Source of the DNA: Betaproteobacteria bacterium
GTDB lineage: Bacteria; Pseudomonadota; Gammaproteobacteria; Burkholderiales; SG8-41
NCBI GenBank assembly: GCA_021730905.1
Contig: JAKFYK010000043.1
Location: 1 to 64,000 of the forward strand
DNA: 64,000 bases
Reading direction: 5' to 3'
The notes below the pieces were generated by a model that did no database searches, was not told the DNA's origin, and saw nothing but the letters and a program-made list of their open reading frames with translations. Position numbers and translations under genes: made by a program. Shown piece after piece: positions 142 to 49,516 of the stretch. Numbering within the stretch: position 1 is the first letter of the stretch; each line of letters opens with the position of its first letter.

Positions 142-1149
142 CTACTGAATTTTGATATCCGCGGCCTTCACCACGCCGCGCCACAGGGTTATTTCCTTGA
201 GGATTTGATCGTGCAGCGCTTCGGGCGTGCCGCCCGCGGGTGATACGCCGTCACCGCGCAAGCGGTCTTCCATCTCCTTGCTGCGGATGATTCTGGTGAT
301 TTCACCGTTCATGCGCTCGACCACCGCGCGCGGCAAACCCCTGGGCCCGATCAGCGCGTGCCAGTTGGACACGTCATAACCCGGCACACCAGCCTCGGCG
401 ATGGTGGGAATACCCGGCTCAGCGGCAATGCGTTTGCCGGTGGTCACTGCCAGTGCGCGGATGCGTCCCGCCTTCACCTGCGGCAATCCGGTCTGCGGCG
501 TCGCGAACACCAGCGAAATTTGTCCGGCCATGAGATCGGTCAGCGCAGGCGCACCGCCTTTGTAGGGGACATGCACCATCTGGATCCCCGCCCTATGCAA
601 AAACAGCGCGTTCGCCAGATGCACAATAGTGCCTTGCCCGGCGGAGCCATAGACGATTTGATCGGGCCGCGACTTGGCCAGCGCAATCAAATCGCGCAGC
701 GTTTTCGCCGGCACGGAGGGATGCACCACGGCAACCAGCGGACCGCGCGCCACCAGTATCACCGGCGTGAATTCATTGACCGGATCGAACTTGATGTTGT
801 AAAGACTCGGATTGATCGAGTAACTGGGCGTGACGAGATTGAAGGTATGGCCATCAGGCGCCGCCCGGATTCCGGCCTCGATGCCCAGCGTGCTGCCGCC
901 GCCTGCGCGATTCTCGACGATCACTTGCTGACCCAGTGTTTCCGTGAGTTTTTGCGCAAGCAGGCGCGCGATGAAATCGGTTCCGCCGCCTGCCGCGGTA
1001 GCGACGATGATGCGCACCGTTTTCGTGGGATACGCTGCTCCTGTCGCAGCGGTTTGCGCACGCGCCTCTGCGCCATGCAGCAGCGCCGCGCAACTCATCA
1101 CCACCACCGCGCAACTGACGCCGGTATTTGTTCTTATTGAATTATTCAA
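142..1149 (-). CDS. Bug/TctC family solute-binding protein
   Basis: YPTKTVRIIVATAAGGGTDFIARLLAQKL, VPYKGGAPALTDLMAGQ and ADIKIQ end; signal peptide; TTG start as called lies in an AT-rich motif, true start uncertain. Confidence 0.93.
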   Translation of the reverse strand: MNNSIRTNTGVSCAVVVMSCAALLHGAEARAQTAATGAAYPTKTVRIIVATAAGGGTDFIARLLAQKLTETLGQQVIVENRAGGGSTLGIEAGIRAAPDGHTFNLVTPSYSINPSLYNIKFDPVNEFTPVILVARGPLVAVVHPSVPAKTLRDLIALAKSRPDQIVYGSAGQGTIVHLANALFLHRAGIQMVHVPYKGGAPALTDLMAGQISLVFATPQTGLPQVKAGRIRALAVTTGKRIAAEPGIPTIAEAGVPGYDVSNWHALIGPRGLPRAVVERMNGEITRIIRSKEMEDRLRGDGVSPAGGTPEALHDQILKEITLWRGVVKAADIKIQ

Positions 1150-1150
1150 T
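1123..1150 (+). repeat. AT-rich dispersed motif, copy H
   Basis: ggtatttgttcttattgaattattcaat. Confidence 0.6.
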
Positions 1151-1289
1151 TCGTCCCTCTGCTTTCACACCGGCACTTTGTAGTTTCCCGTATCCTAGCC
1201 TCCCCGCGGCACGCATACAATCGCCATCATGTGCCGACGCGTCGATGCGCCTCGGTTATACTGCCCCCGGTTCTGGCTGACGCATCCAC

Positions 1290-2267
1290 ATGCTGCAACT
1301 CGAAATGTCCCACACATCGTTCTTGCGCTGCCTGCTTGCAGGCTTGGCGCTCGCCTGCGCTGGCGCGTACGCAGCGGATGTGGCCTACCCGACACGCCCG
1401 GTGCGCATGCTGGTCGGCTTCACGCCCGGCGGCACCAGCGATGTAGTGGCGCGCATTGTCGGCAAGAAGTTGGGCGACGCGTGGGGCCAGCAGTTCGTGG
1501 TGGACAACCGCGCCGGCGCCGGCGGCATCGTCGCCACGGAAATCACCGCACGTGCGGCGCCCGACGGGCACACGCTGTTTTTCGTGTCATCGAGTTTTTC
1601 CATGCAGCCCAGCGCCACACCGAATCTGCCCTACGACATACAGCGCGATTTCGCGCCGGTGACGCTCGCCGTATCATCGCCCTATGTGCTGGTGCTGCAT
1701 CCCTCGGTGGACGCTCGCAGCGTCAAGGAATTGATCGCACTCGCCAAGGCAAAACCCGGGCACCTTTCCAGCGCGACTGCGGGGCCGGGCAGCGCAATCC
1801 ACAGCACGGCGGAACTGTTCAACGCCATGGCGGGCGTCAACATTCTGTTGGTGCCGTACAAGGGTGCAGTGGGCATCACCGATTTGATTGCGGGACAAGT
1901 GCACACGTCGTTCGCCGGCTTTGTGCAAACCATGCCGCATGTGCGCGGCGGACGGCTGCGCGCGATTGCGGTATCGAGCGCACAGCGTTCGGCATTGCTG
2001 CCTGATCTGCCCACCGTCGCCGAGGCCGGCGTGCCGGGATACGACGTCACCGTGTGGTACGGACTGATCGCGCCCGCCAGCACGCCGCGCGCCATCATCG
2101 CCAAACTCAACGCGGGATTTGTGAAAACCATGCAGGCGTCGGAGGTGAGGCAAAATCTCACCGACCTCGGTGTCGATATCGTCGGCAACACGCCAGAGCA
2201 ATTTGCTGCGGTCATACGCGCCGATGCAGAGAAATGGATGCGGCTCGCGAAGACAAAAAGTCGTTAA
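1290..2267 (+). CDS. Bug/TctC family solute-binding protein
   Basis: YPTRPVRMLVGFTPGGTSDVVARIVGKKL, VPYKGAVGITDLIAGQ; signal peptide. Confidence 0.95.
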   Translation: MLQLEMSHTSFLRCLLAGLALACAGAYAADVAYPTRPVRMLVGFTPGGTSDVVARIVGKKLGDAWGQQFVVDNRAGAGGIVATEITARAAPDGHTLFFVSSSFSMQPSATPNLPYDIQRDFAPVTLAVSSPYVLVLHPSVDARSVKELIALAKAKPGHLSSATAGPGSAIHSTAELFNAMAGVNILLVPYKGAVGITDLIAGQVHTSFAGFVQTMPHVRGGRLRAIAVSSAQRSALLPDLPTVAEAGVPGYDVTVWYGLIAPASTPRAIIAKLNAGFVKTMQASEVRQNLTDLGVDIVGNTPEQFAAVIRADAEKWMRLAKTKSR

Positions 2268-2288
2268 TAAACAAATAGTTATATATCT
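2263..2288 (-). repeat. AT-rich dispersed motif, copy G (weak)
   Basis: reverse complement: gatatataactatttgtttattaac. Confidence 0.45.
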
Positions 2289-2301
2289 ACTCGGAGATGG
2301 C

Positions 2302-3090
2302 ATGAAATACGGACGCTTTGAACACCACGGCAAGACTTTCTTCGGCATGGTCGAAGGCGATCAGGTGATCGAACTTGAAGGCTCGATCTTCGGCAGCTAC
2401 AACCCCACCAGCACCAAGCACATGCTGTCGGCGCTGAAGACGTTAGTGCCATGCCAGCCCGCAAATTTTTACTGCGCCGGTATCAACTATCTCGCGCACA
2501 TCGAATGGGGTAACCAGCGCAAGGGCACCAACACCAAACCGCCGGCAAAAGCCGACATCGGCTACCGCTCGCCCAGCGCGCTGTGCGCCACCGGCGACAC
2601 CATCGTCATCCCCGCGGATTCGCCCGGCCCGGTGCAATACGAAGGCGAACTCGTCGCCGTGGTCGGCAAAAAAGCAAAGAATCTCACCGAAACCAATGCG
2701 CTGTCATGCATCCTCGGCTACACGCTGGGCAACGACGTCAGCGACCGCGGCTGGCAGGCATCCGACCGCACGCTGTGGCGCGCCAAGAACTGCGACAACT
2801 GGAAGCCGATGGGGCCGTTCATCACCACTGGCCTCGATCCGCTGGCGCTCACCATCAAAGTCAATCTCGACGGCAAGGAAGTCTCCAGCTACACCACCGA
2901 CAAAATGATTTTCTCGGCGCAGCACTACATCGCCAAAATCACCCAATACACCACGCTATGGCCCGGCGACGTGCTGTGGCTGGGCGTGGACAACGCCACC
3001 ATCCCTGATCTTGAAGATGGCATGGTGTGCGAGGTTATTCAGGATGATATTGGAGTGTTGCGGAATCCGGTTGCGCGGGCGAAGGCGTGA
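2302..3090 (+). CDS. Fumarylacetoacetate hydrolase family protein
   Basis: VQYEGELVAVVGKKAKNLTE, GYTLGNDVSDRGWQ, WKPMGPFITTGLDP, PGDVLWLGVDN typical of FAH fold; start moved to internal ATG. Confidence 0.9.
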   Translation: MKYGRFEHHGKTFFGMVEGDQVIELEGSIFGSYNPTSTKHMLSALKTLVPCQPANFYCAGINYLAHIEWGNQRKGTNTKPPAKADIGYRSPSALCATGDTIVIPADSPGPVQYEGELVAVVGKKAKNLTETNALSCILGYTLGNDVSDRGWQASDRTLWRAKNCDNWKPMGPFITTGLDPLALTIKVNLDGKEVSSYTTDKMIFSAQHYIAKITQYTTLWPGDVLWLGVDNATIPDLEDGMVCEVIQDDIGVLRNPVARAKA

Positions 3091-7216: not shown

Positions 7217-7639
7217 ATGGATACCACACTCATCATCGTTTTACTGGGCGTTGCCCTGCTTGCCATCATTGCATTGCCTGGCTTGTTTCGAAAAAAAGGC
7301 GACGATAACAGTGCCGCGCCATCTCTCGAAAACCCGCGCGCAAACGCACCGGCGCCACAACCCGCAAAACTGACGACGCTGGACGAAATTCAGTCGCAGT
7401 GGTTCGCGCGCTGGTTATGCGAGCAGGCCCGCGCACAAACCGGTATTGATATGACGCGCGACCCGATGGCACTCACCCGCATCGGCGAAGCCGCGAAAAA
7501 AGCTCAGGCCGAAATAGATACCAACGGCCAAGCGGAAATTTCTCTGCCCTACATCGCCGCGGACTCCAGCGGCCCCAAACACTTCAATCTCAAGGTGACG
7601 CGCGAACAGTTGGCAAGCGTGCGGCAGCGCATGGCATAA
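7217..7639 (+). CDS. Small membrane-anchored protein with isolated Hsp70/DnaK nucleotide-binding-domain segment
   Basis: N-terminal TM helix (LIIVLLGVALLAIIALPGLF) then GIDMTRDPMALTRIGEAAKKAQAEIDTNGQAEISLPYIAADSSGPKHFNLKVTREQLASV, strongly resembling DnaK (..DP.A.[45 protein letters not shown]). Confidence 0.85.
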   Translation: MDTTLIIVLLGVALLAIIALPGLFRKKGDDNSAAPSLENPRANAPAPQPAKLTTLDEIQSQWFARWLCEQARAQTGIDMTRDPMALTRIGEAAKKAQAEIDTNGQAEISLPYIAADSSGPKHFNLKVTREQLASVRQRMA

Positions 7640-7644
7640 TTTAA

Positions 7645-7675
7645 TATAAGCATTTGTTTTTAAACAATTATTTAA
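7645..7675 (+). repeat. AT-rich dispersed motif, copy A
   Basis: ataagcatttgtttttaaacaattatttaag. Confidence 0.75.
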
Positions 7676-7765
7676 GTTAGCCGCGCTCCACATTGTCGTG
7701 CATTGTGCCTCCCGATGCGCGTGTGTAGCATGTTCCAGTCACATCAACCGTTTGAGGAGAATCTG

Positions 7766-8212
7766 ATGAGCGCCACGCTGTTTCACTTTTCATTCGCAGT
7801 TAATGATCTCGACCGCGCGCGCAAATTTTACGGCGAGATTCTGCAATGTCCCGAAGGCCGCAAGCTGAAAGGCCGGGTGGACTACAATTTCTTTGGCCAC
7901 CACATCGTGGCGCATCTCGCGCCCGAAGACGTGGTCGGCGACAAAGGCCGCAAGATCGGCGGCGCACTCGTCACGCCGCTGCGCCACTTTGGCGTGGTGA
8001 TGACGCTCGATGATTTCCAGAAAACTGCCCAGCGCGCGGAACAACTCGGCGCGGAATGGATCAACAAGCCCAGCATTACCCAAAAGGGCACGGTGCGCGA
8101 GCAAATGCTGATGACGCTCAGCGACGGTTGCGGCAACGCCATTGAGTTCAAGGGCCTCGCCAAAATTACCGACGTCTACGCGGTGAAAGAACACGAAACA
8201 GCGGCCGCATAG
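7766..8212 (+). CDS. VOC/glyoxalase family protein
   Basis: FHFSFAVNDLDRARKFYGEILQCPEGRK ... DGCGNAIEFKGL. Confidence 0.9.
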   Translation: MSATLFHFSFAVNDLDRARKFYGEILQCPEGRKLKGRVDYNFFGHHIVAHLAPEDVVGDKGRKIGGALVTPLRHFGVVMTLDDFQKTAQRAEQLGAEWINKPSITQKGTVREQMLMTLSDGCGNAIEFKGLAKITDVYAVKEHETAAA

Positions 8213-13708: not shown

Positions 13709-14689
13709 GTGTGTAAAGATAAACCGAATCGGGCATTGGCGTTTGTGTTTTGCGGAATCGCCGGATTGGCCATGGTGAATGCCTCCGCGCAGCCATTCCC
13801 CACCCGCCCCGTGCGCCTGGTCGTGCCCTATCCCCCTGGCGGCGCCAACGATACCGTGGTGCGCCTGCTCGCGCCCAAAGTCACCGAGCAACTGGGCCAG
13901 CAATTCGTGGTGGATAACCGCGGTGGCGGGAATACGATTATCGGTTCCGAACTGGTGGCAAAGGCCGCGCCCGATGGCTACACGCTGCTGATCGTCGCCG
14001 CGGGCCACGCAGTGAATCCGGCCCTGTATACGAAACTGCCGTACGACACCGCGCGCGATTTCGCGCAGGTGGTATTGCTCGGCGATGGCGCGTACGTGCT
14101 GGTAGCGCATCCGTCGGCGGGCGTTTCCACGGTGCCCGAACTGATTGCAGCGGCCAAAGCAAAGCCGGGGCAGATGGCGTATGCATCGTCGAGTATCGGC
14201 AATCTGACGCATCTCGCGGCGGAACTGTTCAACGCGATGGCGGGGGTGAAGATGCTGCATGTGCCGTACAAAGGCGGCGGGCCGGCGATGCTGGATTTGC
14301 TCGGCGGACGGGTCGCGGTATTTTTTTCCACAGTGGCGGTGGCACGGCCGCACATACAATCGGGCAAGATCAGAGGGCTGGGTGTCACAACGGGCAAGCG
14401 CAGCGCAGCGCTGCCGAATCAGCCGACCATCGCCGAAGCCGGTTTGCCCGGTTATGATGTGAGCGGCTGGTACGGCGTGGTGGCACCTGCGAAAACACCG
14501 CGCGCGGTGATCGAGCGCATCAACGGCGCGATGCGTGTCGCGCTACGGCAGCCCGACATCAAGGACAAACTGCTCGCGGTGGGTGTGGAAGCCAGCGATG
14601 CCAGTGTCGAGCAGTTCGACAAACTGGTGCGCGCTGAGTTGGTGAAGTGGGACAGGGTTGCCAAACCGTTGGGCATCACACCCGAGTAA
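13709..14689 (+). CDS. Bug/TctC family solute-binding protein
   Basis: FPTRPVRLVVPYPPGGANDTVVRLLAPKV; VPYKGGGPAMLDLLGGR; GTG start chosen to give a signal peptide. Confidence 0.93.
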   Translation: MCKDKPNRALAFVFCGIAGLAMVNASAQPFPTRPVRLVVPYPPGGANDTVVRLLAPKVTEQLGQQFVVDNRGGGNTIIGSELVAKAAPDGYTLLIVAAGHAVNPALYTKLPYDTARDFAQVVLLGDGAYVLVAHPSAGVSTVPELIAAAKAKPGQMAYASSSIGNLTHLAAELFNAMAGVKMLHVPYKGGGPAMLDLLGGRVAVFFSTVAVARPHIQSGKIRGLGVTTGKRSAALPNQPTIAEAGLPGYDVSGWYGVVAPAKTPRAVIERINGAMRVALRQPDIKDKLLAVGVEASDASVEQFDKLVRAELVKWDRVAKPLGITPE

Positions 14690-14710
14690 TTGCAATATTT
14701 GCCCGCCGTT

Positions 14711-14743
14711 AATAAGCATATGTTTTTATTGAATATTTTTTGT
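14711..14743 (+). repeat. AT-rich dispersed motif, copy B
   Basis: aataagcatatgtttttattgaatattttttgt. Confidence 0.65.
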
Positions 14744-14775
14744 AACGCTATCCGCGTCTACGGCAAGGCCTAGCG

Positions 14776-15972
14776 TTGCCGAATTCCTCGCTTACCGGCA
14801 CCGCCCTCGACCACCGCGCCCTCAACGCGCTGTTTATAGCCGCGGCGTTCGTGATTGCTGGCGGCATTCATTACCAGACGCCGATGCTGGCGACGATAGC
14901 CGCCGAATTTCAGGCAAGTCCCGCGGCCGTGGGCTGGATACCCACGCTGTCGTTCGGCGGCATGCTGGTGGGCGTTGCGCTGCTGGTGCCGCTGGGTGAT
15001 CGCATCGACAAACGCTGGCTCATCATCAGCATGATCACGACGCTCGGGGTGGCGCAGGTGGTGATGTCAGTTGCACCGTCGATCACGGTGCTGGCGGCGG
15101 CGAGTCTGGTTACCGGCATTTGTTCGTCGGTGGGGCTGGTGTTCATCTCCATCGTGGTTGAAATCGCGCCGCACCAGCACCGCGGCCGCGCGGTAGGCAC
15201 GCAACTGATGGCGATGTTCATCGGCATACTGTTCGCACGCATTGCCGGCGGCCTGATCGCCACGCACCTGGGCTGGCGCTGGAGCTACGTGTTCTCGACC
15301 GGCATGCACCTTATGCTGGTTCTCGCGCTGCTGGCACGGTTGCCGCACACGCGCGCGACCACGCAGATGGCGTATCGCGATTTGCTGTGGTCGATCTTCA
15401 CCATCTTTCGCCAGCACGGCAATGTGCGGCGCGCGGTGGCCATACAATTTTTGCTCGGCATTTGCTACGGCGGATTCTGGGCGGTAGTCGCTCCCATGCT
15501 GGCAACGCTGCATCACGTGGGTCCGACCGAAGCCGGCTTCATGGGCATACCGGGCGCGGCAGGCATACTGGTGGCACGGCCGGCGGGGCGCTGGATGGAT
15601 CGCTCGGGCGCGGTGCCGGTGGTGACTACGGGCGTATGTATCATGATTGCGGCGTGGCTCGCGTTCGGATTCGCGGCAACATCGATCGTATTCGTAGTGG
15701 CTGGCGCGATTTTGCTCGACTGCGGCTTGCGCACCGCGATGGTGGCGAACCAGACGCTGGTCAACGCATCAGTGCCCGATTCACGCGCGCGCGCCAACAC
15801 CATCTTCGGCATGCATGTGTGGTGCGGCAACGCAGTAGGCGCGTTTCTCACCAGCACTGCATTCGCGCTCTACGGCTGGCTGGCGGTGTGCGCGATTGCG
15901 ATGACGGCTTCGGTATTTGCCTTGCTGATTCATTGGGGCGTGGTGCCAATAGGCCGCGCAAAGGCCGCCTGA
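14776..15972 (+). CDS. MFS transporter
   Basis: About 12 hydrophobic segments; ATIAAEFQASPAAVGWIPTLSFGGMLVGVALLVPLGDRIDKR. Confidence 0.9.
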   Translation: MPNSSLTGTALDHRALNALFIAAAFVIAGGIHYQTPMLATIAAEFQASPAAVGWIPTLSFGGMLVGVALLVPLGDRIDKRWLIISMITTLGVAQVVMSVAPSITVLAAASLVTGICSSVGLVFISIVVEIAPHQHRGRAVGTQLMAMFIGILFARIAGGLIATHLGWRWSYVFSTGMHLMLVLALLARLPHTRATTQMAYRDLLWSIFTIFRQHGNVRRAVAIQFLLGICYGGFWAVVAPMLATLHHVGPTEAGFMGIPGAAGILVARPAGRWMDRSGAVPVVTTGVCIMIAAWLAFGFAATSIVFVVAGAILLDCGLRTAMVANQTLVNASVPDSRARANTIFGMHVWCGNAVGAFLTSTAFALYGWLAVCAIAMTASVFALLIHWGVVPIGRAKAA

Positions 15973-21913: not shown

Positions 21914-22924
21914 TTATTCTACTTTCGCGCCGGAAATTTTCACGACCTTGGCCCATTTGTCGCGTTCGTTGCGCAGTAGCGCATCGAAATCGCTCGCGGA
22001 GCCGCCTGCGAGATCCATGCCGAGCGCGGCGTAGCGCTCGCGCAGATCGGGCAGCACGCGGTTCATCGTACTGTTCAGGCGTTCGATAACAGCTCTGGGT
22101 GTTTTCGCGGGGGCAGCCATGCCGTACCAGCCCACGACTTCGTAGCCCGGCACACCCGCCTCGCCGATGGTGGGGATGTCCGGCGCCAGCGGCGTGCGCT
22201 TCGCGCCCGTCACGGCGATGGTCTTCAGCCGCCCAGCTTTCGCGTGAGGAATGATCACGCCGCTGGTGAACGACACTTGCACTTCGCCGGCGATCAGCGC
22301 GCTCAGTGAAGGCGCGCCGCCTTTGTACGGGATGTGCGTCATCTCGATGCCGGCCATGGTTTTGAACAACTCCCCCGACAGATGATTGGCGCTGCCGATG
22401 CCGGACGATGCATACGACAAACGCGGATTGCGCGCCTTCGCGACGGCAATCAGCTCTTTTACCGAAGCGGCCGGCACGGCGTTGCTGACGGACAGATAGT
22501 ATTGCGCATGCACGATTTGTCCGACGCCGGCGAAGTCGCGGATCGCGTCGTACAGCACGTTGCGATACAGGCTGGGATTGATGACGTGCGTCGGCGTCAC
22601 AGTGATCAGCGTGTAGCCATCCGGCGCGGCACGCGCCGTCATTTCACCCGCGACACTGCCGCCGGCGCTGGGCCGGTTATCGACCACGAACGATTGTCCC
22701 AGCGTGTCGGCGAGTTTCTGCGTCATGAGGCGCGCCACGGAGTCGGTGCCACCGCCGGGCGCGAGGCCAACCAGCACGCGCACCGGGCGTTCCGGATAAG
22801 CTTGTCCTGAGCTTGTCGAAGCGGCCTGTCCTGAGCCCGCCGCAACAGTTTGCGCCATCGCATCTGAGGTGATCGCTGTGCAACCCCATACGACGGCCAC
22901 TGCAAAACTAAAACCCGATTTCAT
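21914..22924 (-). CDS. Bug/TctC family solute-binding protein
   Basis: YPERPVRVLVGLAPGGGTDSVARLMTQKL; linker AAGSGQAASTSSGQA encoded by repeat. Confidence 0.95.
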   Translation of the reverse strand: MKSGFSFAVAVVWGCTAITSDAMAQTVAAGSGQAASTSSGQAYPERPVRVLVGLAPGGGTDSVARLMTQKLADTLGQSFVVDNRPSAGGSVAGEMTARAAPDGYTLITVTPTHVINPSLYRNVLYDAIRDFAGVGQIVHAQYYLSVSNAVPAASVKELIAVAKARNPRLSYASSGIGSANHLSGELFKTMAGIEMTHIPYKGGAPSLSALIAGEVQVSFTSGVIIPHAKAGRLKTIAVTGAKRTPLAPDIPTIGEAGVPGYEVVGWYGMAAPAKTPRAVIERLNSTMNRVLPDLRERYAALGMDLAGGSASDFDALLRNERDKWAKVVKISGAKVE

Positions 22925-23033
22925 CACTCCTCCCGGTTGACGCTTATGACCATCAACAGCGCGACATTTCTGTTCCGCCAAGAACGCATGCTACACCCGC
23001 GATGCCATGCTATTTCCCCATCATCACACATAA

Positions 23034-23065
23034 CATAAGTATTTGTTTTTAAACGTTTTTATAAT
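23034..23065 (+). repeat. AT-rich dispersed motif, copy C
   Basis: cataagtatttgtttttaaacgtttttataat. Confidence 0.75.
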
Positions 23066-23146
23066 TCGCGCTTTAGCAGGCCCTGTAACGATCCAAAGCA
23101 AGGAAAATAATGCCTGCCGATGCGGACTATCACACAAGGAGCGTAG

Positions 23147-23550: not shown

Positions 23551-24624
23551 ATGCGCATGCGCAATTGGTTGGTGACGGGATCGGTGATTGCGATACTTGG
23601 CTGCGGCGTGGCGGTAACGCGCCCGCTGCCCGACCCGCGCCTGGATCGCTGGGGCGTGAAAGACATGGATCCCGTCATTGCAATGCAGACCACCGATGCG
23701 GCGTGCGAAAGTACCACGCTGGTTTCGACCGGCGGCGCATTCCCCAAAAATCCGCAAACGCTGGCGATACGCTGGACGGGCTTTGCCAATTTCGAACTGG
23801 TGTACAACGGCCAGATTATTTTGCTCGACGCTTATTTCGATCGCGGCAGCGTGTTTCCGCCGCTGGGCTTCACGGCGGCAGATGTGAAGAAGGCCGACGT
23901 GATGCTGATCGGGCACGGCCATGTCGATCACATGTCCGATGCGGCGTCGGTGGGAACCCGCACCGGCGCGGTGATCGTCGGCGCGCCGGTGACCACGGAA
24001 AAACTGCTCACGCAGGGTGTCGATCCCAATAAGGTGCGCACGGTCAACGGGCGCGGCGGCGAAGTGCTTAAGTTCAATGGCTTCACGGTGGAGCCGATAC
24101 TCGGCCGTCACGGCGAGCCGCCGCCGAAAGTAGTTGCCGCGTTTCGGCAGGCGCTCGGCGAAACCACCACGCCGCCCACCAAAGACCAGCTTGCCGAGTT
24201 GATGGCGATACGCGCGCGAGGAACGTCCGACAAACGCGTTATCACCGAAGGAACCATCGCGTATTTGATCACGCTGGATAATGGTTTTCGCATCATGTAC
24301 CGCGATAGCGGTGGCGTGGTGACCGAGTATGAACAGGCCGCGATGGACAGGGTCGGCGGCGTGGATGTGGCGCTGGTGGCGGTGTCGGCCGCGGTGATAA
24401 ACACGCTCACGGTGCAGCGCGCGCTCGAACACATGCGCGCGTACCGGCCGGATGTGTATATCCCCAATCATCACGACGCATCTTTCAACACGCTGTGGCG
24501 CGCCACCGAGCCGTTGTTTCAGGCAATGAAAGACGAAAACCCGAAACTCATCACGGTGTCGAAAGGCTATCGCGAGCCGGTGTGTTTCAATACCGAGTAC
24601 AACCTGCAGCGGCGGCGAAAATAA
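23551..24624 (+). CDS. MBL-fold metallo-hydrolase
   Basis: LIGHGHVDHMSD metal-binding motif (HxHxDH); N-terminal hydrophobic segment. Confidence 0.88.
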   Translation: MRMRNWLVTGSVIAILGCGVAVTRPLPDPRLDRWGVKDMDPVIAMQTTDAACESTTLVSTGGAFPKNPQTLAIRWTGFANFELVYNGQIILLDAYFDRGSVFPPLGFTAADVKKADVMLIGHGHVDHMSDAASVGTRTGAVIVGAPVTTEKLLTQGVDPNKVRTVNGRGGEVLKFNGFTVEPILGRHGEPPPKVVAAFRQALGETTTPPTKDQLAELMAIRARGTSDKRVITEGTIAYLITLDNGFRIMYRDSGGVVTEYEQAAMDRVGGVDVALVAVSAAVINTLTVQRALEHMRAYRPDVYIPNHHDASFNTLWRATEPLFQAMKDENPKLITVSKGYREPVCFNTEYNLQRRRK

Positions 24625-34312: not shown

Positions 34313-35670
34313 TTTGCCAAATGCCCTATGATTTTAGCGAGATTGCCCGCCGTTTCGAAATTCTGCAGCAAGCCGTAAAGCTCTTTTGCTTTCGCCGCAC
34401 CCAGCACCGGCGTCACCAGACCGTCGAATTTTCCCCACACTTCGTCTTCGCTCATGGGATTGTCGGCGTGGCCGAGCACAATGTTCGTATCAGCATGCAG
34501 CGGCTTTGCTTCGCCCTCGACGTAGACATCCAGGTGCGCCTCGTACTGCGGTTGGTCGGGCACCACTTCGACCTCGGTCACCGCTGCGATTTGTTTTAAT
34601 GCGGCATCCTGTTTCAACTTGTCAGTGAAATCGGACGCCACCAGCCGATAGCCGGTCAACCCCATCGCCATGCAATAGCGCACGCTGAATTTGTGTTCGA
34701 GCGGCGTTTGCGGATTCAGTTTATTCGCCACCACCACCACGTTGGGATGCACCCTGGCGTGAACTTTGGTGATTTTTCTCCCGCCTACCAGCGGCGCGAG
34801 TTTGCGCGAGGTTTGTATCGACGCATGCGTGGCACGGCAACTGGCGTAGGGCTTGAAGCCATTCCTTTTTAATTCCCAAGTGCTGAAATCCATAGGCGGC
34901 ACTTCGACTTTGCGATCCTGTATGAACGCATCAAGCAGGCCCTTCTCCAGTTCCAGCAACTGCGTCGCTGAATGAAAACCTTCTTTCGCGAGTTCCGCCG
35001 CGAGGATGCCGTCCATTGCCGCCTTGCCGCCGTGAAACGGTTTCGAGTGCGTGCCGAACGAACCCACCAGACCGCCCGCCGTCGTTACCGCGGCACCCAC
35101 TGCGTATTCGGTTTGCCGCGGCGTCAGTCGCATCAGCACCGATGCCACCACCGCCGCGCCCACGCGCCCGAACACCGACGTCGGATGCAGGCCGCGCCGA
35201 TGCAGGCTGCGCCCCACGCCCGGCGGGCCGCCGCCGCCGAGCCGCGCCATCACCTCGAATCCGGTGATGAATGCTGCCAGCGTGTCTTTCTCGCTGCTGC
35301 CCAGTTGCCCGGCGAGTGCCAACGCCGTGGTTCCGCATACGCAACTGATGTGCCCCGCGCCCATCTGGTGCGAATCGTCGTAATCCATCGCGTGCGCCAT
35401 GGTACCGTTGGCGAGCGCTGCAAACGCGGGTGAGGTGCGTCCGCCGAGAAAGATCTGCGCATTGCCGCGTGCGCCCCAGCCTTCGACCACGCGCCGCACC
35501 GGACGCACGCATTCTTCGTCCCACGCGCCGATGGCACACCCCATCACGTCGATCAGTGCAAGTTTTGCGGCCGCCAACACATCCGCGGGGAATTCGCGCG
35601 TCAGCGCGCCTGCCGCATAGGCAGCAATTTGTTGACTGCGGGTCGTTGTAATTTCCGCCGGTGCGTTCAT
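34309..35670 (-). CDS. MmgE/PrpD family protein
   Basis: ALANGTMAHAMDYDDSHQMGAGHISC; KPFHGGKAAMDGILAAELA. Confidence 0.93.
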   Translation of the reverse strand: MNAPAEITTTRSQQIAAYAAGALTREFPADVLAAAKLALIDVMGCAIGAWDEECVRPVRRVVEGWGARGNAQIFLGGRTSPAFAALANGTMAHAMDYDDSHQMGAGHISCVCGTTALALAGQLGSSEKDTLAAFITGFEVMARLGGGGPPGVGRSLHRRGLHPTSVFGRVGAAVVASVLMRLTPRQTEYAVGAAVTTAGGLVGSFGTHSKPFHGGKAAMDGILAAELAKEGFHSATQLLELEKGLLDAFIQDRKVEVPPMDFSTWELKRNGFKPYASCRATHASIQTSRKLAPLVGGRKITKVHARVHPNVVVVANKLNPQTPLEHKFSVRYCMAMGLTGYRLVASDFTDKLKQDAALKQIAAVTEVEVVPDQPQYEAHLDVYVEGEAKPLHADTNIVLGHADNPMSEDEVWGKFDGLVTPVLGAAKAKELYGLLQNFETAGNLAKIIGHLAK

Positions 35671-35818
35671 GGTAGCTCCTGTGGATCGCCAGCCTGTTGT
35701 CGGGCGCAAATCTTAAGGCGAAACCCCATCGCCCGTCCATGCCGCGACACAGCGCGATCGAATGTCATGTGATGGACGCACGCATCGGTTCTGTATTTTG
35801 GGTTACGATCACGCCACG

Positions 35819-36820: not shown

Positions 36821-38566
36821 ATGCCTGACTACAAGTCAGAAATCCGCGACAACATGCGCATCGACTGGGATGTGCCCATCATCATGGATGACGGGCTGGT
36901 GCTGCGCGCTGACGTGTTTCGCCCGGTAGCAGAAGGCAAATATCCGGCACTGGTGAGTTACGGCCCGTATGGCAAGGGCCTCGCGTTTCAGGACGGCTAT
37001 AAAACCGCGTGGGAGATCATGTGCCGCGAAAACCCCGACGCGGTCGCCAACAGCACCAACAAATACCAGAACTGGGAAGTGGTCGATCCCGAAAAATGGG
37101 TCCCTGATGGCTATGTATGCGTGCGCGTGGATTCGCGTGGCGCGGGGCGTTCGCCGGGTTATCTGTGCCACAACGACGCGAGAGAGAACAAGGATTTTCA
37201 CGATTGCATCGAATGGGCCGCGGCACAGCCGTGGTGCAGCGGTAAGGTTGGACTCAACGGCATTTCGTACTACGCCTCGAACCAGTGGCGCGCGGCAGCA
37301 ACGCAGCCGCCGCATCTCGCCGCGATTTGCGTATGGGAAGGCTGGGTCGATAACTATCGCGACTCCACGCACCACGGCGGCATCATCTGCGTGTTCCGCA
37401 AGAACTGGCAGGAAATGCAGGTAAAAACCGTGCAGCATGGCGTAGGCGAACACGGCACGCGCAGCAAACTGACCGGCGAACTCGCCTGCGGCCCGGAAAC
37501 ACTGAGCGACGCAGAGTTGGTGAAAAATCGGGAAGACATGTGGGCCAATCTGCTCAAGAACACGATGGACGGCCCGTATTACCGCGAACGCAGTGGCGAT
37601 CTGTCAAAAGTGAAAGTGCCGCTGTTGTCGGCTGCGAACTGGGGCGGGCAGGGTTTGCATCCGCGCGGCAACTTTGAAGGGTACGCGCGCGCGGCGTCAC
37701 AACAGAAATGGCTGGAAGCGCACGGCGGCTCGCACTGGGCGCCGTTTTACACCGACTACGGCGTCGGTTTGCAGAAAAAATTCTTCGATTACTTTCTCAA
37801 GGGCAAGCAGAACGGCTGGGACAAACAACCCAAGGTGCAATTGCAGATTCGCCATCCGGGTGAAAAATTCGTGCAGCGCCATGAAAACGAATGGCCGATT
37901 GCGCGCACGCAATGGACGAACTTTTATCTCGACGGCGAAAAACTCGCTCTCGGCACCTTAAAAAATAATTCAATTAAAACAAATACTTACGATATGATGG
38001 GTGATGGCATCACCTTCTCCACGCCGCCACTGGAAAAAGAAACCGAAATCACCGGCCCGTCAGCGCTGAAACTGTTTATCTCGTCTTCCACCCGCGACGC
38101 GGATTTGTTTGTGATCCTGCGCGTGTTCGATACGCAGGACAAGGAAGTCTTGTTTCAGGGAGCGCTCGATCCCAAGACGCCGATCGCGCAGGGCTGGCTG
38201 CGCGCGTCGCACCGCAAGCTCGACAAAACATTGAGTCTGCCGTACCGCCCGTACCACACCCACGACGAAAAGCAACCGCTGACACCGGGCGAGGTTTACG
38301 AACTCGATATCGAAATCTGGCCGACCTGCATCGTCGTTCCCAAAGGCTGCCGCGTCGCGCTCACCATCCGCGGCAAGGATTACGATCACGGTCAATCAGC
38401 GGCTTCGCTTTCCAACATGAAAAATCCGATGAGCGGCTGCGGCCCCTTCATGCACGACGACCCGGTAGACCGCCCGCCGGAAATCTTCGGCGGCAAGGTC
38501 ACGCTGCACTTCGGCCCGCAGCATCCGGCGGCGGTGTTGCTGCCGATTATTCCTGCAAAATCCTGA
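36821..38566 (+). CDS. CocE/NonD family hydrolase (X-Pro dipeptidyl-peptidase-like)
   Basis: MDDGLVLRADVFRP; RVDSRGAGRSPGY; GKVGLNGISYYASNQW nucleophile elbow; GDGITFSTPPLEKETEITGPSALKL. Confidence 0.95.
   Translation: MPDYKSEIRDNMRIDWDVPIIMDDGLVLRADVFRPVAEGKYPALVSYGPYGKGLAFQDGYKTAWEIMCRENPDAVANSTNKYQNWEVVDPEKWVPDGYVCVRVDSRGAGRSPGYLCHNDARENKDFHDCIEWAAAQPWCSGKVGLNGISYYASNQWRAAATQPPHLAAICVWEGWVDNYRDSTHHGGIICVFRKNWQEMQVKTVQHGVGEHGTRSKLTGELACGPETLSDAELVKNREDMWANLLKNTMDGPYYRERSGDLSKVKVPLLSAANWGGQGLHPRGNFEGYARAASQQKWLEAHGGSHWAPFYTDYGVGLQKKFFDYFLKGKQNGWDKQPKVQLQIRHPGEKFVQRHENEWPIARTQWTNFYLDGEKLALGTLKNNSIKTNTYDMMGDGITFSTPPLEKETEITGPSALKLFISSSTRDADLFVILRVFDTQDKEVLFQGALDPKTPIAQGWLRASHRKLDKTLSLPYRPYHTHDEKQPLTPGEVYELDIEIWPTCIVVPKGCRVALTIRGKDYDHGQSAASLSNMKNPMSGCGPFMHDDPVDRPPEIFGGKVTLHFGPQHPAAVLLPIIPAKS
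37958..37990 (-). repeat. AT-rich dispersed motif, copy E (inside CocE/NonD CDS)
   Basis: reverse complement: gtaagtatttgttttaattgaattattttttaa. Confidence 0.7.
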
Positions 38567-39611: not shown

Positions 39612-41291
39612 TCACGACGGCATCCACGGCATCGGCGCCTGCGACGCGAACTCGGTGCGGCAATCAATCACCGCTGGCAGATCGGATGCCATCGCCTGCT
39701 CGAAGGCCTTCTTGAAATCCTGCGGTTTATCGACAACCACGCCGAAGCCGCCGAACGCGCGCGCGATCTGCGCGAAATCGGTTTCGAGAAACTCGTAACA
39801 CTCGTCCCTGCGATTGGGTTCCGGCGTATTGCTGTAGGCGATGGAGAGGTTCTTCACGCCCTGCGCGAGACATTTGTTGTTGTTGACGATGGTGACGGTC
39901 TTGATGCCGCGGCGGCGTGCGGTTTCCAGTTCCGGCAGGTGATAATAAAAACCGCCATCGCCGGTGAAGCAGAATACCGGCTTGTCGGGCGCGCCGCACT
40001 TGCCGCCCAGCGCCGCCGGGAATGACCAGCCGAGCGAGCCCGCGGCGCGGAAATAGCGCTGCGCTGGATGGTTGAAATACACCATGGTATTGGTCCACAG
40101 CGCGGCAAAGCCGGTGTCGGCGAACAGGATCGCGTCTTTCGGCAGCAGCTCGGTAAGTTCGCGGCAAATGCGTCCGGGATTCATCGGCACGGCATCGGAA
40201 TTGCGCAGCTTGTCGACCTCGGCACGCCAGTCGGTGACATATTTTCGCGCAGCGGCGAGCCACGCGTCGTGCTTTGCGGGCGCTACGGCGGCGGTAATCG
40301 CTTCCACCGCCGTGCGCACGTCGGCGAGCACGCCAATCACGCCGGAGTAGTTGCGGCCGATTTCCACCGGGTCAATATCGATCTGGATGATGGGCGTGCC
40401 GTCCTTCGGCATTTTGTAGTAACCGGTGGTGTGGTCGCTGGTGTTGCTGCCGGCGTAGATCACCAGATCGGCATCCGTCACCACCTGATTGCCACAGGTG
40501 CGCCCGTAGAGTCCCATGGTGCCGTGGAACAGCGGATGTTCCTCGACCATGATCGACTTGGCATCGGGTGTGGCCACCACCGACGCCTGAATTTTTTCCG
40601 CAAGCTTCGCTATCGCCGCGCCCGCATCGGAAATAATCGCGCCGCGATCGGCAACGATCACCGGCTTTTGCGATTTCGCGATGGCCGCCACCGCGCGCTG
40701 CACCGCCGCCGCATCGGGCGCCGGACGAAATGCCGGGTAACGCGTGTGCGCCTCGTCGGGCAACACGTCGAATTCACCGGTGAGGTGCGTGATCGCATCG
40801 CCGGTCAATCCTGCCATGTCGATATGCACCGGCCGCGGCGTGCCGGTGGTCGCCTCGCGGAACGCCTGGCGCATCACCTGCTGCATCTGACCCAGCACAT
40901 CGATCTCGCCGTGAAACTTGGTCACCGCTGCGTAAAGCGACGGATGTTCGACTTCCTGATAGGCATTGCGATACTGGAACTCCGGCACGTGACGGCCGCT
41001 GATCGCCACCACCGGCGAATGGCCGAGATACGGATCCTGCATGCCCGACGCCAGATTGGCGGCGCCCACCGATTGCGCCATGCACACGCCCGGTCGCCCC
41101 GAGGTACGCGCATAGCCGTCGGCCATGTACGCCACGCCCTTCTCGGAGTGGCCGAGGATGCGCTTGATGCCGGTATCTTCCATTTCGGCGAGCGCGCGCC
41201 GCAGCACCGCATCCATGAAAAACAGGTGTGTGACACCGTACGATTTAAGAATTTGGCCGAATAATCTCGCGCCGGTCATTTTTTGTGGCAT
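39612..41291 (-). CDS. Thiamine-pyrophosphate-dependent enzyme (acetolactate synthase-like)
   Basis: HSEKGVAYMADGYARTSGRPGVCMAQSVGAANLASG; FTGDGGFYYHLPELETARRRGIKTVTIVNNN TPP-binding motif. Confidence 0.93.
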   Translation of the reverse strand: MPQKMTGARLFGQILKSYGVTHLFFMDAVLRRALAEMEDTGIKRILGHSEKGVAYMADGYARTSGRPGVCMAQSVGAANLASGMQDPYLGHSPVVAISGRHVPEFQYRNAYQEVEHPSLYAAVTKFHGEIDVLGQMQQVMRQAFREATTGTPRPVHIDMAGLTGDAITHLTGEFDVLPDEAHTRYPAFRPAPDAAAVQRAVAAIAKSQKPVIVADRGAIISDAGAAIAKLAEKIQASVVATPDAKSIMVEEHPLFHGTMGLYGRTCGNQVVTDADLVIYAGSNTSDHTTGYYKMPKDGTPIIQIDIDPVEIGRNYSGVIGVLADVRTAVEAITAAVAPAKHDAWLAAARKYVTDWRAEVDKLRNSDAVPMNPGRICRELTELLPKDAILFADTGFAALWTNTMVYFNHPAQRYFRAAGSLGWSFPAALGGKCGAPDKPVFCFTGDGGFYYHLPELETARRRGIKTVTIVNNNKCLAQGVKNLSIAYSNTPEPNRRDECYEFLETDFAQIARAFGGFGVVVDKPQDFKKAFEQAMASDLPAVIDCRTEFASQAPMPWMPS

Positions 41292-41377
41292 TGCATTTCT
41301 CCCTTTTAGCTGCGGCCGATGATACCGCGGACGATTTCACATACATCATCACGCGCTGTTTCACTGCGGCGATAATT

Positions 41378-41413
41378 TATAAAATATCATTTTAAAACAA
41401 ATACTTATATACA
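41378..41413 (-). repeat. AT-rich dispersed motif, copy D
   Basis: reverse complement: tatataagtatttgttttaaaatgatattttataaa. Confidence 0.75.
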
Positions 41414-41430
41414 AACATCGTAGGGTTCCG

Positions 41431-42219
41431 TCACGCACCACGCAAAAAAGGAATTACCGTTTGGACGAAAAGCTCGGGCGATTGCGCGTGCATGAAATGC
41501 CCGGAATCAGCCTCAACGTAACGCGCGCCGGGAATCAACTTCGACAGTTCCTGCACCATCGCCGGCGTGCGCAGCGAGTCGTGCTTGCAGCCTATCGACA
41601 GCGTGGGACAGGAAATTTTCCCCAATTCAGTATCGACTTCCATATCAAGCAGCATGCGATTGATCGCCGCGAAACTTTGCGGGTCGTTGGTCATCCAGCG
41701 CGCACGGTAGTTTTCAAAGCGTTCTCTATTGCCGCGCAGAACTTCCGGATACGAGCGATCGAGGCTCGCCTGCGCCTGCGGGCGCATGCCGGTGCGTTCG
41801 ACCTCTGCCGCTCGCGCGACCATGTGCGGGCGCGTCGCCGGACTCGAGCGCGTGACGAGACTTTGCACCACCAGTCGCGCCACTCGCGCAGGATGGCGTG
41901 CCGCAAACGCGGCGGCGATGCCCGCGCCCAGCGCAGAACCAACCACATGACACGGCGTTTTGATCGCCAGCGCATCGAGCAGCGCGGCAATATCCGCCAC
42001 CATATCGTCGAGCGCCAGCGTGCCGCTCACCTTCTCGGATTGTCCAAAACCTCGTTGATCGTAACGCAACGTGCGAAATTCGCGCTGGAACGCCGGTAGT
42101 GTTTCGTCCCAGCTATCGAGGCAGCCGCCCAGCTCATGCACCAATACAACCGTCTGCGCAGAGGACCCGCTCAGTTCGTAGCGCAAACTGACACCATTGA
42201 CGTCCAGCCATTTCATCAT
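41431..42219 (-). CDS. Alpha/beta hydrolase (3-oxoadipate enol-lactonase-like)
   Basis: VVLVHELGGCLDSWDETLPAFQREFRTLRYDQRGFGQSE; HVVGSALGAGIAAAFAARHP; GHFMHAQSPE. Confidence 0.9.
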   Translation of the reverse strand: MMKWLDVNGVSLRYELSGSSAQTVVLVHELGGCLDSWDETLPAFQREFRTLRYDQRGFGQSEKVSGTLALDDMVADIAALLDALAIKTPCHVVGSALGAGIAAAFAARHPARVARLVVQSLVTRSSPATRPHMVARAAEVERTGMRPQAQASLDRSYPEVLRGNRERFENYRARWMTNDPQSFAAINRMLLDMEVDTELGKISCPTLSIGCKHDSLRTPAMVQELSKLIPGARYVEADSGHFMHAQSPELFVQTVIPFLRGA

Positions 42220-46568: not shown

Positions 46569-46579
46569 CCGCCGCCGTC

Positions 46580-47560
46580 ATGCGCCGCAGTGGCCTGCTC
46601 CTGATCATCTTCTCGGCATGCGCGCTGGCGGGGATCGCGCACGCGCAAGCCTGGAAGCCCGCAAAGCCGGTGGAACTCGTGTCGGGCTCCGCAGCAGGCG
46701 CGGCCTCCGACACCGCCTTGCGCGCGGTCGAACGCCTGCTGCAGGAAAAAAAACTGGTCGATGTGGCCACCACCATCGTCAACAAGCCCGGCGGCGGCGG
46801 CACCGTCGGCTGGACCTATCTCACTCAGCAGCCGGCGGACGGACATCATCTGACACTGTTGATCGGCAACCTGGTGAGCAATTACATCACCGGAAGCAGC
46901 ACGCTGTCGCACAACGATTTCGCGTGCACGGCGCAGATTTTCAGTGAAGTGACCGCGGTGGCGGTGCGCGCGGACTCACCCCTGCGCAACGCGAAGGATC
47001 TGCTGGCGAAACTGAAGGCCGATCCGTCATCGATCAGCGTCGCGGTCGGTACCGCGTTCGGCGGCTCCGGGCACATCGCGCTGGCGCTCGCCGCCAAGGG
47101 TGCTGGCGCCGACCCGAGGAAAATGCGTGCGCTGGTGTTTCCCGGCGTGTCGCAGGGCTTCGCGGCGCTCTACGGCGGGCATATCGACGTGGTTGCCAAT
47201 CCGCATTCCAGTTTTGCCGCACCGCTGAAAGAAGGCCGCGTGCGTGTGCTGGCAATCGCGGCTCCACAGCGCCTCGGCGGTGACTTTGCCGCCGTGCCGA
47301 CGTGGAAAGAACTTGGTATCGACGCCACCGTGGAAGCCTTTCGCGCCATCGCCGGACCGAAGAACATGGGCGCGGCGCAGGTGGCGTTCTGGGAAGGCGC
47401 GCTGCGCAAAATGGTGGAAACGCCGGAGTGGAAACAGGTGGTCGACAATCGCTCGTGGGTAGACAGATTCGCGGGCGCAGAGGGCTGCAAGGCTGCGTTC
47501 AAAATACAGTACGACCAGATGCACATCGGTTTGACGGAACTGGGCCTGGCCAAGCGTTAG
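46580..47560 (+). CDS. Divergent Bug/TctC family solute-binding protein
   Basis: WKPAKPVELVSGSAAGAASDTALRAVERLLQEKKLVDVATTIVNKPGGGGTVGW; signal peptide. Confidence 0.9.
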   Translation: MRRSGLLLIIFSACALAGIAHAQAWKPAKPVELVSGSAAGAASDTALRAVERLLQEKKLVDVATTIVNKPGGGGTVGWTYLTQQPADGHHLTLLIGNLVSNYITGSSTLSHNDFACTAQIFSEVTAVAVRADSPLRNAKDLLAKLKADPSSISVAVGTAFGGSGHIALALAAKGAGADPRKMRALVFPGVSQGFAALYGGHIDVVANPHSSFAAPLKEGRVRVLAIAAPQRLGGDFAAVPTWKELGIDATVEAFRAIAGPKNMGAAQVAFWEGALRKMVETPEWKQVVDNRSWVDRFAGAEGCKAAFKIQYDQMHIGLTELGLAKR

Positions 47561-47574
47561 CCGCGCCCCCGCCT

Positions 47575-48549
47575 GTGAATATCACCGTCCTCGACGACTA
47601 CACCGATCTTGTGCGCACGCTGGCGTGCGTATCCACACTCCGCGAGCACCCGCTCACCGTGTACACCGACTGCGAACGCAATCTCGATGTGCTCGCGGAT
47701 CGCCTCAAGGACACCGACGTGCTGGTGCTGCTGCGCGAACGCATGCGAGTGAGCGCTGAACTGATCACGCGCCTGCCGCGGCTGAAAATGATCACGCTGA
47801 ACGGTCCGTATCCGCATGTTGATGTCGATGCCTGCACTGCGCGCGGCATCCTTGTGTGCTCGGAACACGCGCGCACCTCGTACGCGACGGCGGAACTGAC
47901 GTGGGGGCTGATCATCGCCGCGATGCGCGACATTCCGCGGCAAATGATGCGGCTGAAGAACGGACAATGGCAGAACCGCACGGGCATGGGGCTGCGCGGC
48001 CGCACGCTGGGCATTTACGGTTATGGCCGCATCGGCAAGCAGGTCGCGGGGTACGGCAAGGCGTTCGGCATGGCCGTGCTGGTATGGTCGCGCGAGAACG
48101 CGCGGGCGCAGGCCCAATCCGATGGTTACGAGGTCGCGGCGACGCGCGAGGCCCTGTTTGACGAGGCCGACGTGTTGTCGGTGCATGTGCGGCTGCTGCC
48201 GGAAACACGCGGTCTGGTCACCGCGGCCGACCTGGCGCGCATGAAACCGACGGCGGTGTTCGTGAACACCAGCCGCGCAGAACTGGTGGCCGGCGGCGCA
48301 TTGGTGGCCGCGCTGCATGCCGGTCGTCCGGGGGCTGCTGCGGTGGACGTTTATGAAAACGAGCCAATGACGAACGCAAACGATCCGCTGCTGCAACTCG
48401 ACAACGTCGTCGCCACGCCGCATCTGGGTTACATGGAGCACGATCAAATGGAAAATTATTTCAGCGATCAGTTCAGGCGCGTACTGGCGTATGCGATGGG
48501 CAAACCGTACGGCGTGGTGAATCCCGCCGCATTGGATGTAAAGCGTTGA
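47575..48549 (+). CDS. D-2-hydroxyacid dehydrogenase family protein
   Basis: GRTLGIYGYGRIGKQVAGYGKAFGMAVLVWSRENA; VFVNTSRAELV; DVYENEPM; GTG start chosen. Confidence 0.9.
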   Translation: MNITVLDDYTDLVRTLACVSTLREHPLTVYTDCERNLDVLADRLKDTDVLVLLRERMRVSAELITRLPRLKMITLNGPYPHVDVDACTARGILVCSEHARTSYATAELTWGLIIAAMRDIPRQMMRLKNGQWQNRTGMGLRGRTLGIYGYGRIGKQVAGYGKAFGMAVLVWSRENARAQAQSDGYEVAATREALFDEADVLSVHVRLLPETRGLVTAADLARMKPTAVFVNTSRAELVAGGALVAALHAGRPGAAAVDVYENEPMTNANDPLLQLDNVVATPHLGYMEHDQMENYFSDQFRRVLAYAMGKPYGVVNPAALDVKR

Positions 48550-48550
48550 T

Positions 48551-49516
48551 ATGCGGGCCGCACTCGCAACGTTGGCATGGTTTATCAGCGTGCTGGCACA
48601 CGCGCAGCCCGCGTGGCAGCCGCAACGTCAGATTGAACTCGTGGTGGGTTCAGGCGCCGGCGGCGGCAATGATCGCAACGCGCGCGCTCTGCAAAAAATA
48701 TTGTTTGAAAACAAATGGTTACAGAATGTCTCGGTCGTCAACAAAGTGGGCGGCGGCGGCGCGCTGGCTTACACTTACGTCAACCAGCATGTGAATGACG
48801 CGCACTATCTGGTGTTCGTGCGACAGGGATTTTTGTCGAATCACGTGCTGGGGCGCAGCGCGATTGGCCCGGCGGACATGAGCGCCCTTGCCATGCTGAC
48901 CAGCGAAGCGAGCGGGATCGCGGTGCGTGCCGGCAACACGGCGCTGAAATCACTGCCGGATGTTATGGAACGCCTGAAGCAGGACCCGCAATCGCTGACC
49001 ACGTCTCTTGGCAGCACGCGCGCCGGCACGCCGCACCTGATGCTGGGACTGCTGGCAAAGGCGGGCGGCATCGACGCGCGGCGGTTCAAGCTCGTCACTT
49101 TCAGCGGCGGCGCGGAATCGACCACGCAATTGCTCGGCGGCCACATTGACATGGCCGCGGTCAGCATCGACAACACGGCGCCGCATCACAAGAGCGGCGC
49201 ATTGCGCATCCTGGGCGTTTCCAGCGCCCAGCGCCTCGCCGCGCTGCCCGACGTGCCCACGTTCAGGGAGCAGGGCTACGACATCGTGATGGGTGGGTTC
49301 ACCATCGCCATGGGTCCGCGCGGACTGACACCGGCGCAGATCCAGTACTGGGAAAATCTGCTGGAGCGTGTATCCGGCAGCGCCGAATGGAAGCGCCTGC
49401 TGGCGGCCGATCTGCAGGATGTGGATTTCAAGAGATCGGCGGCGACACGCGAATATCTGCGGCAGCAATATGAATTGACACGCACTTTGCTGGCCGACAT
49501 CGGCATGACCAAATAG
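48551..49516 (+). CDS. Divergent Bug/TctC family solute-binding protein
   Basis: WQPQRQIELVVGSGAGGGNDRNARALQKILFENKWLQNVSVVNKVGGGGALAY; signal peptide. Confidence 0.9.
   Translation: MRAALATLAWFISVLAHAQPAWQPQRQIELVVGSGAGGGNDRNARALQKILFENKWLQNVSVVNKVGGGGALAYTYVNQHVNDAHYLVFVRQGFLSNHVLGRSAIGPADMSALAMLTSEASGIAVRAGNTALKSLPDVMERLKQDPQSLTTSLGSTRAGTPHLMLGLLAKAGGIDARRFKLVTFSGGAESTTQLLGGHIDMAAVSIDNTAPHHKSGALRILGVSSAQRLAALPDVPTFREQGYDIVMGGFTIAMGPRGLTPAQIQYWENLLERVSGSAEWKRLLAADLQDVDFKRSAATREYLRQQYELTRTLLADIGMTK
48691..48722 (-). repeat. AT-rich dispersed motif, copy F (inside Bug CDS)
   Basis: reverse complement: gtaaccatttgttttcaaacaatattttttgc. Confidence 0.6.

What the first reader, a model, noticed from the sequence alone, without database searches (positions are those of the whole stretch)
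1123..48722. Dispersed AT-rich motif of about 30 bp (ATAAGYATTTGTTTTNAAANNATNTTTTTT) in a GC-rich region, at least 8 copies
Copies at 1123, 2263, 7645, 14711, 23034, 37958(-), 41378(-) and 48691(-) share a core such as ATAAGYATTTGTTTT plus an AT-rich tail. Copies A and C share 20 bp with one mismatch. In this GC-rich sequence such similarity is unlikely by chance. Copies A and F contain TTGTTT-NN-AAACAA, a near-palindrome. It matches no repeat family I recognise. It could be an operator, a promoter-associated element, a nucleoid-protein nucleation site, or a miniature mobile element.
Basis: seen in the sequence. Interest (0 to 1): 0.8.

Follow-up and report, generated by a model that had tools for sequence, protein, structure and literature searches.

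The report
Genome-wide array of IHF bend sites
A roughly 37-base AT-rich sequence repeated about 700 times around this uncultured betaproteobacterial genome is a very strong form of the known docking site for the DNA-bending protein IHF; such a dense, spread-out and evolutionarily preserved set is unusual and suggests that it helps fold the chromosome.

Summary
The host genome has 690 matches to an 18-base core against 3 in a reversed-pattern control. The motif is ~37 bp, asymmetric, with no conserved flanks: WWWWtrTAASTATTTGTTTTTAWWNaWTATTTTTW. Seven of the eight listed copies are strong; the copy at 1123 is weak.

Read on the other strand it is A-tract, 8 bp, WA[A/T]CAA-N4-TTR: the geometry of a strong integration host factor (IHF) site, as in lambda H'. 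A matrix built only from these Burkholderiales sites puts cosB I1 and two pL-upstream sites on top in phage lambda, and the ilvPG IHF site on top in 50 kb of E. coli. A genome in another family carries a dialect that is exactly WATCAANNNNTTR.

Sites are conserved at orthologous positions, even inside a coding gene, where they override codon usage. They occupy operon-internal gaps in both orientations and are mildly over-dispersed, so they look like chromosome-architecture sites rather than promoters, operators or mobile elements. In this family, motif-rich genomes encode IhfA and IhfB but no HU. Binding is inferred, not shown; the architectural role is the weaker step. New variant of a known kind.

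The parts
   Evidence: below the reliable range of the matrix
2249..2290 (-). IHF-type site, 39.5 bits, between codirectional genes 1290-2267(+) and 2302-3090(+), overlapping the end of the first
   Evidence: gene calls
7638..7679 (+). IHF-type site, 56.8 bits, between 7451-7639(+) and 7730-8212(+)
14704..14745 (+). IHF-type site, 44.7 bits, between 13772-14689(+) and 14776-15972(+)
23027..23068 (+). IHF-type site, 49.1 bits, in a large gap between 21914-22783(-) and 23551-24624(+) as called
37957..37998 (-). IHF-type site, 54.7 bits, inside the S15 peptidase gene 36821-38566(+); kept above 28 bits in 9 of 10 congeneric orthologues
41375..41416 (-). IHF-type site, 56.9 bits, between 39612-41216(-) and 41431-42219(-); conserved in L115 (46 bits)
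48689..48730 (-). IHF-type site, 45.0 bits, inside the TctC-type receptor gene 48551-49516(+)

Best explanation
IHF would bind it asymmetrically and fold it by about 160 degrees. The roughly 700 copies, about one per 6-7 kb, lie in both orientations, in operon-internal and other gaps and sometimes inside genes. They act mainly as fixed bend points that organise the nucleoid (pinning plectonemes or limiting the spread of supercoils), in a lineage whose only DNABII proteins are IhfA and IhfB. Shown: copy number, motif, IHF-like anatomy, recovery of known IHF sites, vertical conservation, DNA-level constraint inside a gene, placement and spacing, and the DNABII gene content of relatives. Inferred: binding by IHF, and the architectural role.
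For: Anatomy: the reverse complement of the G416 dialect is AAAATA-N8-AATCAA-N4-TTA, lambda H' is AAAAAA-N8-TATCAA-N4-TTG; published IHF sites are 35 bp with the consensus on one side and an A-tract on the other (PMC8421141); WAWCAA is an observed footprint consensus in E. coli (PMC8407004). Blind recovery: top three lambda hits at pL -180, cosB I1 and near pL -86, with H2 and H' in the top ten; shuffled lambda tops average 10, 6 and 4 bits against 26.6. The single outlier in 50 kb of E. coli lies upstream of ilvL. Protein: 16 of 16 motif-rich genomes of the family that were checked have exactly two DNABII genes; those typed are IhfA and IhfB. Selection: orthologous conservation and GC3 of 0.13-0.47 inside the intragenic site against 0.70-0.79 in the rest of the gene. 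Placement without regard to gene orientation and in operon gaps; fewer close pairs (<2 kb: 12 against 20.9, P 0.006) and fewer gaps >15 kb (7 against 11.8, P 0.02) than a gap-based null.
Against: The host assembly yielded no DNABII gene at all (91.7% complete), so its IHF is inferred from congeners. HU loss is neither sufficient (g4 lacks both HU and motif) nor required (G416 has HU-type genes and the motif). IHF is present in genomes without the motif, so IHF alone does not explain it. The oriC and osmY sites of E. coli were not recovered and dps and pspA only weakly. The N4 positions, free in the E. coli consensus, are conserved here. The evenness of spacing is modest, and its overall coefficient of variation is not below the null.
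Confidence: 0.7

Rival explanations
1. The sites are IHF sites, but ordinary regulatory ones: IHF acts as a global transcription factor that bends promoter regions of several hundred operons.
For: Strong preference for gaps upstream of at least one gene; convergent gaps rarely occupied (5 of 67, against 90 of 350 codirectional). The recovered reference sites at ilvPG and pL are regulatory.
Against: 24% of 20-60 bp codirectional gaps carry a site, none of 14 divergent gaps below 120 bp do; both orientations equally; no fixed distance to start codons; intragenic sites conserved.
Confidence: 0.2
2. The motif is a DNA uptake sequence of a naturally competent lineage, spread by biased uptake and recombination.
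For: Hundreds of copies on both strands, clade dialects, vertical conservation, mild over-dispersion, location in permissive regions, all known of uptake sequences (PMC2397512).
Against: IHF anatomy and blind recovery of IHF sites are unexplained. The ComP-type pilin family PF16732 does not discriminate carriers from non-carriers. The motif is far longer and more AT-rich than known uptake cores.
Confidence: 0.07
3. The sites are bound by a different, unidentified protein whose AT-rich site resembles an IHF site.
For: The four N positions are conserved here and the total information exceeds that of E. coli sites; IHF is present also in genomes without the motif.
Against: The match extends over consensus, A-tract, spacer and length, and the matrix ranks known IHF sites first in two unrelated test sequences.
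Confidence: 0.08
4. A miniature mobile element or REP/RIB-type repeat dispersed by transposition.
For: Hundreds of near-identical copies; patchy distribution.
Against: Sequence conservation ends within a few bases on both sides; the intragenic copy arose by substitution without a net insertion; positions are inherited vertically.
Confidence: 0.02

Closest known systems
Strong IHF sites of phage lambda and E. coli (attP H' and H2, cosB I1, pL upstream, ilvPG)
   Same: A-tract, 8-bp spacer, WA[T/A]CAA, N4, TTR, about 35 bp; recovered by the matrix
   Different: Known sites are few per genome and score far lower on this matrix (ilvPG 18.0, best lambda 26.6, host median 36.8); host dialect has A for T in WATCAA and conserved N4
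RIB elements / BIME-1 of E. coli (IHF-binding repeats)
   Same: Many dispersed chromosomal IHF-binding copies (PMC2817692)
   Different: RIBs are IHF sites between REP palindromes, described at 3' ends of transcription units; here flanks are not conserved and convergent gaps are avoided
DNA uptake sequences of Neisseriaceae and Pasteurellaceae
   Same: Copy number, both strands, clade dialects, conserved positions, wide spacing
   Different: IHF anatomy here; no discriminating uptake receptor found; uptake not testable with these tools

Membership tests
IHF binding site | WATCAANNNNTTR core | tested here: met
   Exact in the G416 dialect; one substitution (WAACAA) in the host dialect, which is also present in the recovered E. 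coli ilvPG site and within the footprint consensus WAWCAACnnnTT
IHF binding site | A-tract on the far side, at the spacing of lambda H' | tested here: met
   6-bp A-tract and 8-bp spacer in both
IHF binding site | site length about 35 bp, asymmetric | tested here: met
   information spans about 37 bp, not palindromic; 35 bp published
IHF binding site | model ranks experimentally known IHF sites first | tested here: met
   lambda top three and ilvPG; E. coli oriC and osmY not recovered, dps and pspA only weakly
IHF binding site | IhfA and IhfB encoded | tested here: inconclusive
   Yes in congeners; not found in the incomplete host assembly
IHF binding site | bound and bent by IHF | not testable with these tools
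   needs gel shift, footprint or ChIP
RIB / BIME-1 | flanking REP palindromes | tested here: not met
   no conserved sequence in 60 bp on either side
DNA uptake sequence | hundreds of copies, both strands, dialects among relatives | tested here: met
DNA uptake sequence | specific uptake of motif-bearing DNA through a dedicated pilin receptor | not testable with these tools
   ComP_DUS family present with and without the motif
Miniature mobile element | clean insertion relative to an empty orthologous site | tested here: not met
   S15 gene orthologues show substitution, no net insertion

The most novel reading that the evidence does not exclude
In a lineage without HU, IHF has become the chromosome's architectural protein in a sequence-programmed way: several hundred to about a thousand near-optimal bend sites, roughly evenly spread and maintained by selection even against codon usage, encode the folding or topological domains of the nucleoid in the DNA sequence.
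Probability: 0.35. Interest if true: 0.8.

Novelty: new variant of a known kind. Interest (0 to 1): 0.62.

Why it matters
IHF is usually described as binding a few hundred sites specifically and the rest of the chromosome non-specifically, and its role in folding the nucleoid is debated. A clade in which near-optimal IHF sites are written into the chromosome every 5-7 kb and kept by selection, with losses (G010, G014) and dialect shifts (g6, g7, f25) among relatives, makes that role testable by comparison: which sites exist, where, and what changes when they are lost. It also shows a chromosomal DNA-binding site imposing sequence constraint inside a coding gene.

Tried and rejected
ComP-type uptake receptor as the driver: PF16732 is present regardless of the motif. 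G177 as an independent carrier: its copies belong to an unrelated longer repeat. HU loss as the sole cause: HU-less g4 genomes lack the motif, and G416 has both HU-type genes and the motif. IhfA residue 56 (Asp in E. coli; Leu, Ile or Val in g1) as the cause of the WAACAA dialect: G020 has Asp with the WAACAA dialect, so not supported. RNA-level function: no strand preference, and no Rfam family or tRNA in the window. Clustering or strong periodicity: not seen; only mild over-dispersion once gap positions are allowed for. A class-wide scan of 274 genomes (two of them from the same order) with a longer dialect-tolerant pattern found no further rich genome. A first attempt to hand in this report was malformed.

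Full report
Observation. The window (60.5% G+C) lies in a 5.1 Mb, 182-contig genome. Its relatives by name are uncultured betaproteobacterial MAGs. Seven of the eight listed copies are strong; the one at 1123 is weak and the one at 2263 is on the minus strand. Genome-wide, TAASTATTTGTTTTTAWW with up to two mismatches occurs 690 times against 3 for the reversed pattern. In 855 kb an iterated matrix finds 138 sites, 118 of them above 35 bits; Markov sequence gives none above 12. The reversed real sequence gives some scores in the 20s and 30s but none at 38 or more, against 112 real. The consensus is WWWWtrTAASTATTTGTTTTTAWWNaWTATTTTTW, about 37 bp; nothing is conserved beyond it on either side.

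Distribution. Thirteen of the 14 genomes of the genus (the host included) carry about 220 to 1,100 sites; G010 carries 16, with decayed tails. Genera g6 (726) and g7 (135-310) of the same family carry many and g8 few (24-61); g3, g4, g5 and g9 have essentially none, and g2 has few, decayed copies. Of 399 genomes drawn from the order, only one outside the family, G416, is rich (123 hits), and it carries a dialect, TAASTATTTGATTWTATTNAATATTTT, with the same flanks and tail. In the g6 genome G018 most copies read TAAGTTATTGTTTTTA; the g7 genome G019 mixes TTTGTTTT and TTTGATTT. A class-wide scan found no other rich genome.

Identity. The reverse complement of the G416 dialect is AAAATA-N8-AATCAA-ATAS-TTA. 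Lambda H' is AAAAAA-N8-TATCAA-TTTG-TTG. The published IHF consensus is WATCARNNNNTTR on one side of a 35-bp site, with an A-tract on the other side in most of the strongest sites (PMC8421141). In the host dialect the T of WATCAA is A; genome footprinting in E. coli gives WAWCAACnnnTT in unsynchronised cells (PMC8407004). As a blind test I scanned phage lambda with a matrix built only from Burkholderiales sites. The best hit is 35741-35782 and the third 35642-35683, both upstream of pL. I recall IHF sites at about -180 and -86 there from established knowledge; that IHF stimulates pL is documented by the title of a reference seen. The second hit is 65-106; cosB I1 is bp 65-90 (PMC4856287). H2 and H' follow within the top ten; shuffled lambda gives much lower tops. 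In E. coli 3905000-3954900 one hit stands out (18.0; next 8.2), at 3950175-3950216 upstream of ilvL; the IHF-dependent ilvPG promoter lies there (title of a reference; ilvG is a named IHF site in PMC8407004). It too has AACAA. Three further 50 kb pieces gave no hit above 11.5; the dps and pspA upstream regions held weak hits, and the oriC and osmY sites were not recovered. The median host site scores 36.8 on the same scale. I conclude that the motif is a very strong IHF-type site.

The protein. Motif-rich genomes of the family encode exactly two DNABII proteins (16 of 16 checked: ten in g1, one in g6, five in g7). Those read are IhfA and IhfB by alignment; the pair of G004 exceeds the curated NCBIfam cut-offs and has E. 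coli IHF chains as nearest solved structures. HU is absent there. Genomes of the family with an HU-type gene (typed in G015; inferred from the Pfam score in G017, G022, G023, G028, G029, G033 and G034) have 0-5 sites. The association is not strict: g4 lacks both HU and motif, G416 has both, and the genomes are not phylogenetically independent. The host assembly itself (91.7% complete) yielded no DNABII gene, so its IHF is inferred from congeners.

Selection and placement. Sites are found at the same place and in the same orientation in relatives at about 80% DNA identity, where the surrounding intergenic DNA often no longer aligns. Losses are by decay or, in one case (G004), a short deletion. 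The copy at 37957 lies within an S15-peptidase gene. Nine of ten close orthologues keep it above 28 bits and the tenth is degraded to 13; more distant orthologues lack it and show no net insertion. Inside the site GC3 is 0.13-0.47 against 0.70-0.79 in the rest of the gene; the distant orthologues have 0.60-0.87 there. So the DNA motif is held at the expense of codon usage. Of 135 placed sites in the sample, 115 are intergenic by my own simple gene calls. Codirectional gaps are occupied in 90 of 350 cases (24% even at 20-60 bp), divergent in 18 of 94 (0 of 14 under 120 bp), convergent in 5 of 67. Orientation relative to flanking codirectional genes is 51 against 40. In about ten cases the TAA of the motif is the stop codon of the upstream gene. 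Close pairs and long empty stretches are somewhat rarer than a gap-based null predicts.

Interpretation. Placement follows free space rather than promoters, orientation is random, and positions are conserved. I therefore favour a chromosome-architecture role: fixed IHF bends every 5-7 kb. IHF is reported to pin plectonemes and to be able to divide DNA into topological domains (PMC9519438 abstract), and about 600 BIMEs have been proposed as domain barriers in E. coli (PMC6907758). A purely regulatory role and a DNA-uptake role remain possible but explain fewer of the facts.

Novelty. IHF sites and IHF-binding repeats (RIBs; PMC2817692) are known. I found no report of hundreds of flank-free, near-optimal IHF sites maintained through a clade, but the paper search was limited to open-licence papers. 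Hence: new variant of a known kind.

Noticed in passing
L276 (G010:C113:278-1144): The one congener that has lost the motif (G010) carries a third, divergent IhfB-like DNABII gene on a 6.5 kb contig.
   Followed up: partly
IhfA of G001, G003, G004, G005, G010 (L258, L257, L254, L256, L268): The Asp of the E. coli LRDK stretch near the DNA-contacting arm is Leu, Ile or Val in g1 IhfA. It does not track the WAACAA dialect in g8.
   Followed up: partly
L077 1340-1780, L071 4810-5070, L068 13700-14000: Other dispersed repeats sit beside motif sites in relatives: hairpins of the type TTCCCGCGAAAGCGGGAA and AATCTGCGTTAATCTGCGTCAA-type repeats. They are rare in the host sample and absent from the window.
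   Followed up: partly
L195-L221, odd numbers (G177): An unrelated repeat of more than 60 bp (ACCACGAATGACACGAATGTTCACGAATGAACACAAATAGTTAAC) with at least 20 copies in one genome of family f15.
   Followed up: no
window 52706-56119: Long protein with about ten TPR_12 stretches and a C-terminal CHAT protease-like domain.
   Followed up: no
G000 whole assembly: No DNABII gene (PF00216) was found in the host assembly although all 36 other genomes checked had at least one; probably an assembly gap.
   Followed up: partly
loci L112, L113, L114, L116, L120, L128, L167: Several MAG records titled 'Bordetella parapertussis' carry genes 78-91% identical to this uncultured betaproteobacterium; the titles look unreliable.
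   Followed up: no
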